Assembly: GCA_964019415.1 (NCBI GenBank)
Contig: OZ025872.1
Coordinates: 6,961,322 to 7,025,321, forward strand
Length of the DNA stretch: 64,000 nt
Source: Ianthella basta
Taxonomy: Eukaryota > Porifera > Demospongiae > Verongiida > Ianthellidae
Direction of reading: 5' to 3'
Shown: positions 6,125 to 20,998 of the stretch, one piece after another
How the letters are laid out: each line of letters begins with the position of its first letter
How positions within the stretch are numbered: position 1 is the stretch's first letter
Made by a program: the position numbers and the translations under genes
The notes under the pieces: generated by a model
What the model saw: only the letters and a program-made list of their open reading frames with translations
Told to the model about the DNA's origin: nothing
Database searches by the model: none

Positions 6125-6907
6125 AATCAAGCTACGATGATGACGTTGTACGTGAGGCATTCAGAAGGTCTAAAGCTACACTTCTGAAACGTCTGCCCAT
6201 CCACACGCTACCATCTGCGCTAGAGTGTGAACGAATCATCAGCGAAGAAGAGCACTCCTTGATCACTGTCAGCGGCAGCAGCAGGTAAGAGCAAATTGTT
6301 ATCAAGTCCAGTTCTGTAATTTGATTGAGTTGCTCAGTCTGTTCACATGTTACCATCATGCATGCAGCATGGTAGAGCCTGTCCTATCCAGCGCATATCC
6401 TACACACATTATACCACTCTTTGAGTGTGTTTGCTAGCTAGGTACATATAGTTTAGTTGAATAGCTGTGGTGTCTGTTACTCTGAGTCTCAAGTAAGTAT
6501 TACACTGCCATTTGTGCTGTGCATACACACCACAGGCAATCTGGTGGCATTCACCTGCTGTTAGTAGAATTGTGTAGTAAGGGTAACATTATGGCTGACA
6601 AATTGGAGAGTGGATACAGTGAAGAGGGGGAGTCTAGACTACATAGCTATCATGCAATACTGGCACTACTACTGAGATATGCCAGAACTAGTCAATCCAT
6701 TAGCATAATTATGTGTATTTTCCTGTTATAGTATGCAGCAGAGAGAGAAACTGGTAGACCTTTTGCTGACAAAGGATGGCTGTGCACTCTTGAAAGTACT
6801 GGAGATACTGAGAACCCGAGAGTGCGGTTATGAAGGCTTGGTGGCCAAGCTTATTACTGATGTAGAAGCCATGCAGAAATGCAAGTGCACTAAGCCACAA
6901 AAAGACA
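6125..6907 (+). other. CARD-like death-fold domain (two exons)
   Basis: The exons 6125-6284 and 6732-6907 encode about 110 residues that look like a caspase-recruitment domain. A first helix ends in LLKRLPIHTLPSALECERII. A middle helix reads QQREKLVDLLLTKDGCALLK, and the last helices read VLEILRTRECGYEGLVAKLI. The LLL..G..A...L pattern followed by a C-terminal ...GYEGLVAKL helix is typical of CARDs. A phase-2 intron splits the domain in the loop before the QQREKL helix. Homology is judged by pattern only. Confidence 0.65.
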
Positions 6908-18900: not shown

Positions 18901-20998
18901 ACATCAGTACAATCCAATCTTTGGCACCCAAAATGGGGACACTTCTCCACAGCACAGACTATTGTGGATGCACCATGCTGCATTGGGCTGCACAAGGAGG
19001 CCATGCTGAAATGGCACAGTTTGTAATCAATGAGTTCAAGCTGGAACCCACTGCCCATGACAAGGTGTGTTTGTTTATGGGAGTGTGTATATCTGTGTTT
19101 GTGTCTGTGTGTGCTTGTGTTAGCAGACAGCACGGTAGTGCTGTCTATGTAGGGATGGCGGTGGTTATTTGTATGCTGTAATACAACCGAAAAGTAGCAC
19201 AATCATCTTATAGGGCTGAAATCCAGCAAAGAAGGCTACCCAAGAGGAGGTGTGGGTTGTATACCACTCAGAACTAACCTTACTTCCAAGCAAAACAAAG
19301 CACTCCCGCAGAAAGGACCTTGCCATTTTCTGTATTTCGTTGTCTTCTTATTCTTCTCTGACAGCAGTAGCAAACGAACCATAATGAGTAGAAGGAAGCC
19401 TTTACCACAGTTTAATTTACCCTCAAACTAGCTGTATTCCTGTGTAGGTTAGAAATCTCCGTGAACAAGTTTCACAAATGAGGGTTTCCGAGCCTTCAAT
19501 AGACATTGTAGTTTGTGAGGGTGGCAGATTTACTATGGCATGATAGCTAGAAAGTTATATGTCTAGTGTTGTCGACCACACAGAAATGTTTGTAGGTTTG
19601 GGTGCATGCAGCGTGATGATCTATATAAGAATTAATCTCATCTCGCATTCCTATCTTATGTATGCCTGCCTTCTTGCCTTCATGTCTTCTACTATTTATC
19701 TTGCAGTGGGGCTACACCCCTGTGTTGAGAGCAGTTTTAAATGGACACTCCAACCTTGTTGAAATCCTGACAGGACACTATGGCTGTCCTTTGACTGATG
19801 TGACAAATGTGAGTGGGCCTTCAAGTATTCCATGTAGTTGTATTCAGCATGCTATTTGTTATAATTGTCTTGTGTACTATTAATAATTGTTTTCAATAAG
19901 AATAAGAAATAAGAATAAAATGAGAATGTGGGCGTCTGTGAACTGCAGTGGAATACCAGACTAATAGAATAATGCACATTAAATTGTGGACGAAACAGTA
20001 AATTCACACCAGCAGTAATGGTTGTTACTTGTGGATGCTTCAGTATCATTCAGGGGATGATCAAGGCCAAGCAGTGGTCGTGTATGCTTGCGTGGCATTT
20101 TCAATGCTCTTCTCGTATTCTCTTGTTCCCATTATCCACTATTGTATACTCCTAATACCATGCCTGGGATGTGTGAAAGTTCACTTGCCCTAACTGTCAT
20201 GTTTTGTTAACATTCTTTGTCTGTATGCATTTTTACTTAATAATTATTGCTTTGTAGCCAAAGCCACAAAACTCTGCCATCAATGATCTCACAGTATCAC
20301 CACTCAGTCAGCTGAAGCTGGTGCAAGGAAGCGAGAACTGTGGCTTCAGTGACTTATGACTATGTATATTGTGGTAGTAAGAGTTTCAATTTATAGTGCA
20401 GCTTGTGATGTAGACGTTAATACTGCTGGCTTGTATTATAGAAGCATTGATTTAGCTGTAGAGCTGTTTAATTTTGTTGTTTCTCACAGGATGGTGATAA
20501 TGCCCTCCACCTTGCTGCCACCAGTGGCTACCTGGAGATGGTGAAGTACCTACTCCCCCTTTTGTGGGACAGGAGACATGACAGAAATAAGAATGGGGAG
20601 ACCTGCCTTGACCTAGCTCAGCAGATGGGTCATCAGGATGTGCTCAATTTCCTTTCTGAGAAAGACAGCCTACCCAGCTCTGCTTCAACTGAACCAGGCA
20701 GGTGTGCCCTTTCCATTACTCTACCCCACATGATATTGTATGCTTTTTCTCTCAGTTGCCTATGCTCCCTGTTTCCCTCACATATATCGCTGCATGCTTG
20801 CTTGCCCCTAGCTCGCTAACGGAGCTACCAACTCTCCACTCATCCCCACTGACCCATGCACACACCTTGCCTACACTTCCACAGTCACCTCTACTGCATG
20901 TTGATCATACCCCCTGTGTGCCCCTCACCAATGGCCCACCACTTCCATGTGCACTTTCCCAAGGCTATTGGCCACTCAAGCATGCCCCTCTTCACTGA
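6125..20998 (+). CDS. CARD / coiled-coil / multi-ankyrin scaffold protein, about 30 exons
   Basis: One reading frame runs through 29 exons: 6125-6284, 6732-6907, 8472-8588, 8720-9630, 10757-10814, 11095-11150, 11655-11933, 12023-12238, 12400-12510, 12687-12788, 12863-13057, 13157-13209, 13389-13590, 13811-14020, 14496-14594, 14832-14933, 15635-15838, 15982-16086, 16169-16372, 16563-16664, 16789-16992, 17293-17394, 17831-18034, 18327-18428, 18861-19064, 19707-19808, 20258-20320, 20490-20701, 20812-20998. The sum is 5042 nt, about 1680 residues, plus an unresolved first exon. Order: CARD-like domain, unrecognised region, coiled coil, four ankyrin repeats, a linker (exons at 13157-14020), nineteen ankyrin repeats and a Pro-rich tail. 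The architecture suggests an intracellular scaffold for CARD-dependent signalling (inference). No NACHT, kinase or membrane segment is visible. Weakest joins: acceptor 13157 and exon 20258-20320. It could still be two genes, but every phase fits one. Confidence 0.75.
9941..9956. repeat. Poly-C tract
   Basis: Sixteen consecutive C residues in an intron of the CARD-ankyrin gene. Confidence 0.95.
10441..10569. repeat. (TG)n microsatellite
   Basis: About 129 bp of TG repeat with a few interruptions (GC, CATG), in the intron between exons 8720-9630 and 10757-10814 of the CARD-ankyrin gene. Confidence 0.95.
11655..12238 (+). other. Coiled-coil segment of the CARD-ankyrin protein
   Basis: Exons 11655-11933 and 12023-12238 encode an acidic stretch followed by heptad-like sequence (MAVLRLELKDSEQKRMELIH; LKEMVAKLQEVEDANSELEI), with a short Pro-rich break (HPPPSVLPLPPPPEEP) between two coils. 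This suggests oligomerisation, as in other CARD scaffolds. Confidence 0.7.
13591..13702. repeat. Compound (GT)n(GA)n microsatellite that contains a splice donor
   Basis: The exon 13389-13590 ends in AGGCAGGCAG and is followed without any gap by GTGTGTGTGTATATGTGTG and a long pure GT run, then about 25 bp of GA. The GT donor is therefore the first dinucleotide of the microsatellite. Confidence 0.9.
15250..15426. mobile_element. MITE-like element with about 40-bp terminal inverted repeats
   Basis: The left end (TCACAGCAAAATTCGATAGA, then GAGGACTACAGTCC) is repeated in reverse complement at the right end (TCACAGCAAAGTCCAACAGA, then GGGGACTACAGTCC). Length is about 177 bp, with no coding capacity. 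It sits in an intron of the CARD-ankyrin gene, just before exon 15635-15838. Superfamily not assigned. Confidence 0.7.
16373..16378 (+). promoter_or_regulatory. Non-canonical GC splice donor
   Basis: The ankyrin exon 16169-16372 ends GACAAG and is followed by GCGAGT. All sister exons end GACAAG|GT, so the boundary is fixed by homology and the donor here is GC. It is one of three GC-AG introns supported in the window. Confidence 0.8.

What the first reader, a model, noticed from the sequence alone, without database searches (positions are those of the whole stretch)
6125..20998. CARD + unknown domain + coiled coil + about 23 ankyrin repeats in one protein
Reading splice phase exon by exon gives a single open frame of about 1680 residues. 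The combination of a CARD with a long ankyrin array but no NACHT or kinase is not one I know from bilaterian immune scaffolds, although ankyrin plus death-fold proteins are known to be expanded in sponges. The coiled coil gives a way to cluster, and the ankyrin array a way to bind. This is my best candidate for an undescribed signalling system.
Basis: partly seen in the sequence, partly recalled or inferred. Interest (0 to 1): 0.75.

Follow-up and report, generated by a model that had tools for sequence, protein, structure and literature searches.

The report
CARD–TRADD-N-like–ankyrin immune-type adaptor gene
This is one member of a large family of probably immune-related genes in this animal (most likely a sponge) that join a cell-death adaptor domain to a long ankyrin binding array; the general kind was described in 2021, so the finding is real but not a new signalling system.

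Summary
The exon chain is real. The start codon is missing, the C-terminal end is unsure, and there are no transcript data.
The 'unknown domain' is probably a divergent TRADD-N. It folds beta-alpha-beta-beta-alpha-beta (pLDDT 87), with Ser in 32 of 32 aligned rows in the beta2-beta3 turn. TRADD's N-terminal domain (1f2h) has the highest query TM-score, 0.52, of 50 Foldseek rows listed, but E is 0.34. No Pfam TRADD-N profile reaches its cut-off.
The genome holds at least 109 related loci, 178 with a more distant set. A tandem neighbour repeats CARD-TRADD-N-coil-ankyrin. Kaur et al. 2021 (PMC8195603) describe Death-like + TRADD-N + ankyrin among the commonest themes of a 357-protein expansion in the sponge Amphimedon. 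So: a new member of a known kind. Added here: coiled coil, spacer, and an array of frame-neutral exon modules.

The parts
6125..6284 (+). exon 1: CARD, first half (enters in phase 1, leaves in phase 2)
   Evidence: PF00619 when spliced with exon 2; two-exon split seen in paralogs
6732..6907 (+). exon 2: CARD, second half
   Evidence: single-exon homologues L055, L056 span the junction
8720..9630 (+). exon 3: Ser/Arg-rich linker, helical region (about 8866-9234), RRM-like TRADD-N-like domain (about 9274-9591)
   Evidence: 115 matches in own genome; A1-A3 alignments; AlphaFold2 models
9418..9420 (+). codon of the conserved Ser (residue 56 of window:9253-9636) in the beta2-beta3 turn
   Evidence: Ser in 32 of 32 aligned rows; turn position in model
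11655..11933 (+). exon 4: coiled coil 1
   Evidence: matches in L090 (C54), L089 (L019 gene), L039/L040 (L010 gene)
12023..12238 (+). exon 5: proline-rich stretch and coiled coil 2
   Evidence: 40% identical match in L090
12400..13057 (+). exons 6-8 (12400-12510, 12687-12788, 12863-13057): ankyrin block 1, 4 repeats
   Evidence: collinear in C54 paralog at 62, 73 and 74% identity
13157..13209 (+). exon 9: short linker
   Evidence: only; the least certain exon
13389..14020 (+). exons 10-11 (13389-13590, 13811-14020): spacer region, no Pfam family
   Evidence: 53 matches in own genome, 37 of 50 used lie downstream of a TRADD-N-like exon on the same strand; no Pfam family over cut-off
14496..14933 (+). 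exons 12-13 (14496-14594, 14832-14933): ankyrin repeats 5 and 6
   Evidence: exon 12 match in the L019 gene
15635..19808 (+). exons 14-23: alternating B (204 nt, 2 repeats) and A (102-105 nt, 1 repeat) ankyrin modules, all phase 0-0
   Evidence: same modules in the L019 gene
20490..20697 (+). exon 24: terminal ankyrin module, 2 repeats; frame continues open to a stop at 20817-20819
   Evidence: 61% identical terminal module in the L019 gene

Best explanation
The locus is one member of a large family of immune or cell-death adaptors. Proposed working: (1) the 23-repeat ankyrin array binds a ligand (a microbial, viral or modified host protein); (2) the helical plus TRADD-N-like domain, at the joint between the constant N-terminal part and the variable C-terminal part, holds the protein inactive and changes shape on binding, through a surface centred on the conserved Ser; (3) the coiled coil brings copies together; (4) the clustered CARDs seed a CARD assembly that recruits a CARD-bearing caspase or adaptor and sets off cell death or NF-kB-type signalling. 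Shown here: domain order in the exon model, constraint on the coding frame, family size, repeated architecture, predicted fold and Ser of the TRADD-N-like domain. Inferred: one transcript, ligand binding, the switch (proposed by Kaur et al. for TRADD-N proteins in general), oligomerisation, and the CARD partner.
For: CARD. TRADD-N-like domain: predicted fold, Ser in 32 of 32 rows, TMq 0.52 to TRADD 1f2h. A distant in-genome set (L061, L092-L094), with G then S or C at that turn, aligns with the family by hhalign at 95.5%, E 1.4e-8 for this one comparison, 209 columns; L061 holds the only PF13820 NCOA6_TRADD-N match found in the genome. CARD plus TRADD-N as a unit: 40 of 150 PF00619 places lie within 4 kb upstream of an L061-type exon on the same strand, 0 downstream, 0 on the other strand; 16 of 49 window-type CARD exons used (60 found) lie within 6 kb upstream of a window-type TRADD-N exon, 2 downstream, 1 opposite. 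Constant N-terminus with variable C-terminus: L019 has 9 ankyrin repeats by my count, while the 11 kb after the TRADD-N exon of L010 shows coiled-coil-like exons and no match to the window's ankyrin exons. Constraint: dN/dS 0.14-0.26 for exon 3 (dS saturated). Prior description of the kind: PMC8195603.
Against: No transcript, protein or functional data. No curated TRADD-N profile matches at its cut-off; the residue before the Ser is His in the window, not tiny; two of the three distant relatives L092-L094 have Cys in place of Ser, which the paper allows as an occasional change. Foldseek E-values are weak: 1f2h is rank 21 of 881 rows with E <= 10. The window CARD sits 0.2-0.4 bits below the Pfam cut-off, and one of three spliced paralog CARDs gave no Pfam match at E <= 1. 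Only 4 of 150 Pfam CARD places lie within 4 kb upstream of a window-type TRADD-N exon. 20 of 115 family rows carry in-frame stops. Ankyrin arrays also serve in development and scaffolding, so an immune role rests on analogy.
Confidence: 0.5

Rival explanations
1. Two adjacent genes: gene 1 is CARD-TRADD-N-coil-ANK4-spacer (to about 14020); gene 2 is an ankyrin-only gene from 14496, perhaps the 3' remnant of an L019-type gene left by unequal crossing over.
For: Exons 3-11 (exon 9 not searched) match the C54-type gene, and exons 12-24 match the L019-type array, so the locus looks like two sources in series. With the window's ankyrin exons as queries, nothing matches within 5.7 kb after the spacer in C54 nor within 7.8 kb after one C3 spacer.
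Against: The spacer's last exon ends at a phase-0 GT donor in 5 of 5 paralogs read and in the window (read by eye), so transcripts probably go on. Exon 12 begins at an acceptor without a start codon, and its match in L019 lies between the coiled-coil and B-module exons. About 6 kb downstream of one C3 spacer lies a 535-residue ORF with ankyrin repeats and a sub-cut-off Roc match, though it may be a separate gene.
Confidence: 0.2
2. A non-immune scaffold: the array organises membrane or cytoskeletal partners, and the CARD is a plain assembly domain.
For: No effector domain was found in the model; ankyrin arrays and coiled coils are common in scaffolds (general knowledge). dN/dS is well below 1 in the TRADD-N-like exon.
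Against: More than 100 diverged copies, most on two contigs, with differing C-terminal parts in the few read, fit conflict-driven families better than a housekeeping scaffold.
Confidence: 0.2
3. A decayed copy (pseudogene).
For: No start codon found in exon 1; one GC donor; sister copies have in-frame stops.
Against: No stop in 1518 codons over 24 exons; dN well below dS; paralogs L053 and L054 also lack an in-frame start in exon 1, which points to a 5' exon.
Confidence: 0.08

Closest known systems
Amphimedon NCOA6-clade TRADD-N proteins (Kaur et al. 2021, PMC8195603; passages and sections 8 and 13 read)
   Same: N-terminal Death-like domain(s), then TRADD-N, then a variable C-terminus, commonly ankyrin repeats or SH3-LRR; large lineage-specific expansion
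   Different: A coiled coil in these proteins and the 137-residue spacer are not mentioned in the passages read; no direct sequence comparison with Amphimedon was possible here
TRADD (PDB 1f2h, N-terminal domain)
   Same: RRM-like fold, Ser in the beta2-beta3 turn, Death-fold partner domain (the last two from PMC8195603)
   Different: TRADD has a C-terminal Death domain and, as far as I recall, no ankyrins; Foldseek E 0.34, 10% identity, rmsd 6.8 over 133 columns
Cnidarian DED-TRADD-N-ankyrin proteins (same paper, passage)
   Same: Death-fold, TRADD-N, ankyrin order
   Different: DED rather than CARD; up to four proteins in that clade per the passage, against at least 109 loci here
NLRs and Apaf-1
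   Same: CARD joined to a repeat sensor; Apaf-1 CARDs are the best natural PDB hits of the CARD profile
   Different: No NACHT or NB-ARC family in the 1518-residue model

Membership tests
TRADD-N superfamily | RRM-like beta-alpha-beta-beta-alpha-beta fold | tested here: met
   predicted model: E8-15 H24-38 E47-53 E57-64 H65-74 H78-86 E89-94, pLDDT 87, pTM 0.77; 1f2h TMq 0.52, E 0.34
TRADD-N superfamily | conserved Ser in the beta2-beta3 turn | tested here: met
   Ser in 32 of 32 rows of A3, residue 56 between strands 47-53 and 57-64. Cys in 2 of 3 distant relatives outside A3
TRADD-N superfamily | tiny residue just before that Ser (the 'u' of uS) | tested here: not met
   His in the window; tiny at -1 in 4 of 32, at -1 or -2 in 20 of 32. 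The paper says 'usually glycine'. I read this as a divergent subfamily and claim probable, not proven, membership
TRADD-N superfamily | match to a curated TRADD-N profile | tested here: not met
   PF20694: 0 places in the genome; PF13820: 1 place, below cut-off, in relative L061; 1 of 32 A3 members at E <= 1, E 0.012, the lowest of 11 stray families
TRADD-N superfamily | homology to sequences already filed as TRADD-N | tested here: inconclusive
   hhalign to the L061/L092-L094 set 95.5%, E 1.4e-8 for one comparison, but that set itself rests on L061's sub-threshold PF13820 match; L092-L094 gave none
Kaur-type Death-like + TRADD-N + variable C-terminus proteins | N-terminal Death-like domain joined to TRADD-N | tested here: met
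   exon order and linkage, with the CARD and TRADD-N calls as graded in the other rows; no RNA
Kaur-type Death-like + TRADD-N + variable C-terminus proteins | lineage-specific expansion with differing C-termini | tested here: met
   109 loci, 178 with the distant set; differing parts after the TRADD-N exon in the three paralogs read, L010, L019, C54. That the expansion is lineage-specific was not tested: no related genome
CARD | PF00619 match | tested here: inconclusive
   23.5-23.7 bits against cut-off 23.9; relative L059 36.9 bits, neighbour L019 23.9; A4 profile hits solved CARDs
CARD | six-helix Death fold | not tested
   spliced protein is outside what structure prediction takes; job not sent
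NLR | NACHT or NB-ARC ATPase | tested here: not met
   no such family at E <= 0.1 in 1518 residues
Ankyrin-repeat protein | ankyrin repeats | tested here: met
   PF12796 E 1.7e-157

The most novel reading that the evidence does not exclude
The array is built from frame-neutral exon cassettes: 18 of 24 exons are phase 0-0, and A (1 repeat) and B (2 repeats) modules alternate. One gene could therefore make many receptors of different length and specificity by exon choice, a combinatorial ankyrin receptor repertoire feeding one CARD output, with the spacer as an undescribed regulatory or effector domain.
Probability: 0.1. Interest if true: 0.75.

Novelty: new member of a known kind. Interest (0 to 1): 0.4.

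Why it matters
It gives an exon-level anatomy of a sensor-adaptor family of the kind reported as hugely expanded in a sponge. It shows how such genes may vary: a constant CARD-TRADD-N head, differing tails, and ankyrin exons that can be added or skipped without a frame shift. If the switch model is right, early animals would have solved receptor diversity with TRADD-N plus repeats in place of NACHT ATPases. The spacer is a concrete unnamed region with tens of copies to study.

Tried and rejected
Direct Pfam scan of exon 3: no family for the window, only stray rows for other members. PF20694 over the genome: nothing. PDB sequence search with A1: nothing; with A3: five YetJ rows at E about 4, ignored; with A5: one unrelated row, E 0.27. 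PDB search with the spliced CARD alone: nothing. The first fold model (285 residues, pLDDT 76.6, pTM 0.52) gave only weak rows, some of ferredoxin/ACT type. The VIA-align library was not on the machine. Spacer: only a sub-cut-off GH88 match, rejected. Caulimovirus and cyclodipeptide-synthase matches to the CARD exons are sub-cut-off and were taken as chance. A gene tree left the window unplaced in its subfamily. A simple ankyrin pattern found only 8 repeats and was not used for the count. Literature: seven full-text searches; among their listings PMC8195603 is the one I found that describes the kind. PMC10055258 and PMC8242945 were seen as passages only and add context. The sponge NLR paper PMC3879445 is not held. 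A shuffle test of the spliced frame (0 of 1000) is circular, because the exons were chosen to be open, and is not used.
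Full report
Setting. The window is part of contig C5 (6961322-7025321) of an unnamed 209-Mb genome in 96 contigs. The organism was not identified. That it is a sponge is my inference from the gene family and its literature, not a test.

The observation. I rebuilt the gene from the sequence. Twenty-four exons from 6125 to 20697 give 1518 residues without a stop; the other forward frames hold 86 and 99 stops. All 24 acceptors are AG and 22 of 23 donors GT; exon 16 uses GC. Twenty of 23 junctions are phase 0. Exon 1 enters in phase 1 and has no start codon. 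In the tandem neighbour L019 the matching exon carries an in-frame ATG just before the CARD, so the CARD probably sits at the very N-terminus. At the other end the frame stays open to a stop at 20817-20819, which puts the protein near 1560 residues.

CARD. Spliced exons 1-2 score 23.5-23.7 bits to PF00619 (cut-off 23.9; E about 5e-5); in the full-length protein the match is 19.2 bits. L019's CARD scores 23.9; of the other two spliced paralogs in that call, one scored 14.2 bits and one gave no family. L010's scored 17.1, the single-exon relatives L055 and L056 23.1 and 15.1, and L059 36.9. A profile of 8 sequences finds Apaf-1 CARD (best 2.9e-5), RAIDD, CARD11 and CARD8 in the PDB; its top row is a de novo designed protein at 3e-7. 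That profile includes L059 and L060, which are stronger CARDs, so it leans their way. Sixty matches to the CARD exons (E <= 1) exist in the genome, and PF00619 finds at least 147 places above its cut-off among 150 scored candidates of 367.

The 'unknown domain'. Exon 3 has 115 matches in the genome, 20 of them with in-frame stops, in 109 distinct loci, 42 on C3 and 36 on C5. A 285-residue model shows long helices and then an alpha/beta domain. The alpha/beta part alone, with 32 rows, models at pLDDT 87 and pTM 0.77 as beta-alpha-beta-beta-alpha-beta with an extra strand and helix. Its one invariant column is a Ser in the beta2-beta3 turn. Kaur et al. report a strongly conserved Ser, occasionally Cys, at that turn in TRADD-N, and ACT and dystroglycan-type domains as structural kin (section 8 of PMC8195603). 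Foldseek returns no significant row: 881 rows with E <= 10, none <= 0.001. Among the 50 rows listed, TRADD's N-terminal domain (1f2h, rank 21, E 0.34) has the highest query TM-score (0.52), and aspartokinase (ACT) and dystroglycan rows appear too.

A bridge within the genome. PF13820 (NCOA6 TRADD-N) hits one place in 209 Mb, at E 4.1; it lies in an ORF (L061) about 0.4 kb after a single-exon homologue of the window's CARD. Scanned alone, the ORF gets E 0.021 as its only Pfam match. Against a family profile built without it, it scores E 0.003, above all 2000 shuffles of itself. It has 71 matches in 69 loci, none overlapping the 115, so the union is 178 loci. Three of those relatives carry G then S (L092) or C (L093, L094) at the turn. 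With them, hhalign links the set to the window family at 95.5%, E 1.4e-8 for this single comparison, over 209 columns. One by one against the family profile, L061, L094 and L092 score E 0.003, 0.006 and 0.017, and L093 nothing at E <= 1. The three relatives match no TRADD-N profile. I therefore call the domain a probable, divergent TRADD-N, not a proven one.

Surroundings. Linkage supports one gene family. Of 49 CARD exons used (of 60 found), 16 lie within 6 kb upstream of a TRADD-N-like exon on the same strand, 2 downstream, 1 on the other strand. Of 50 spacer exons used (of 53), 37 lie within 15 kb downstream on the same strand, 5 upstream, 0 opposite. These counts include the window itself. 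For Pfam CARDs and L061-type exons within 4 kb: 40 of 150 upstream, 0 downstream, 0 opposite; for the window-type exons only 4 of 150 upstream and 1 downstream. The L019 gene, whose ankyrin end lies about 13 kb before the window starts, has CARD, TRADD-N-like exon, two coiled-coil exons and, by my count, 9 ankyrin repeats in the same A/B modules; it gave no match to block 1's own exons beyond general ankyrin similarity, nor to the spacer. The C54 gene is collinear with window exons 3-11, exon 9 not searched (coils 55 and 40%, ankyrins 62-74%, spacer 58% and 44%). L010 has CARD and TRADD-N-like exons followed, over 11 kb, by coiled-coil-like exons with no match to the window's ankyrin exons. 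So, in the paralogs read, the head is constant and the tail varies; the window combines both ankyrin tail types in series.

One gene or two. The spacer's last exon keeps a phase-0 donor in 5 of 5 paralogs read by eye, and exon 12 starts at an acceptor whose match in L019 is internal. Both favour one transcript. Against it, no window-type ankyrin exon follows the spacer nearby in C54 or in one C3 copy. RNA must decide.

Selection. dN/dS of exon 3 between the window and 22 of 23 paralogs is 0.14-0.26, but dS is above 1 in all of them (undefined in the 23rd) and so poorly measured; the eight closest paralog pairs, with dS 0.13-0.39, give about 0.2-0.4. B modules give 0.09-0.44 and the 102-nt A modules 0.20-0.57. 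The frame is under constraint.

How it likely works. By the switch model of Kaur et al., the ankyrin array would sense, the TRADD-N-like domain would hold and release, the coil would cluster, and the CARD would recruit. Only the anatomy is shown here.

Novelty. Seven literature searches point to PMC8195603, which reports 357 such proteins in Amphimedon; the majority of architectural types have 1-3 Death-like domains and then TRADD-N, with ankyrins or SH3-LRR as the most common tails. The finding is a new member of that kind. The coiled coil, the spacer and the symmetric exon cassettes were not mentioned in the passages I read.

Noticed in passing
window 13389-14020: A 137-residue region with no Pfam family and 53 matches in this genome (26 of them, the window included, at 57% or more identity to its second half), tied to TRADD-N-like genes: an unnamed domain worth its own study.
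   Followed up: partly
window 3990-5303 and 38796-40121: Two FAD_binding_3 monooxygenase-like ORFs with similar starts, probably a duplicated gene, one on each side of the locus.
   Followed up: no
window 28891-29871 and 22862-23218: ORFs with sub-cut-off ANF_receptor matches, perhaps metabotropic-type receptor genes.
   Followed up: no
L091 (C3:3185500-3193300), 2-1606 minus strand: A 535-residue ORF with ankyrin repeats and a sub-cut-off Roc GTPase match, about 6 kb after a spacer copy; possibly another tail of the family or a separate gene.
   Followed up: partly
L041/L042 (C8:1078613-1096612): Paralog L011: an upstream CARD place above the Pfam cut-off, and kinase-like, SH3-like and SH2-like ORFs (read by eye) downstream, with a withheld stretch between.
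   Followed up: no
G000 contigs C1, C3, C4, C15: Very long ankyrin frames, up to 2557 codons (withheld stretches could lengthen some), and at least 212 Ank_2 matches by a capped search: ankyrins look broadly expanded in this genome.
   Followed up: no
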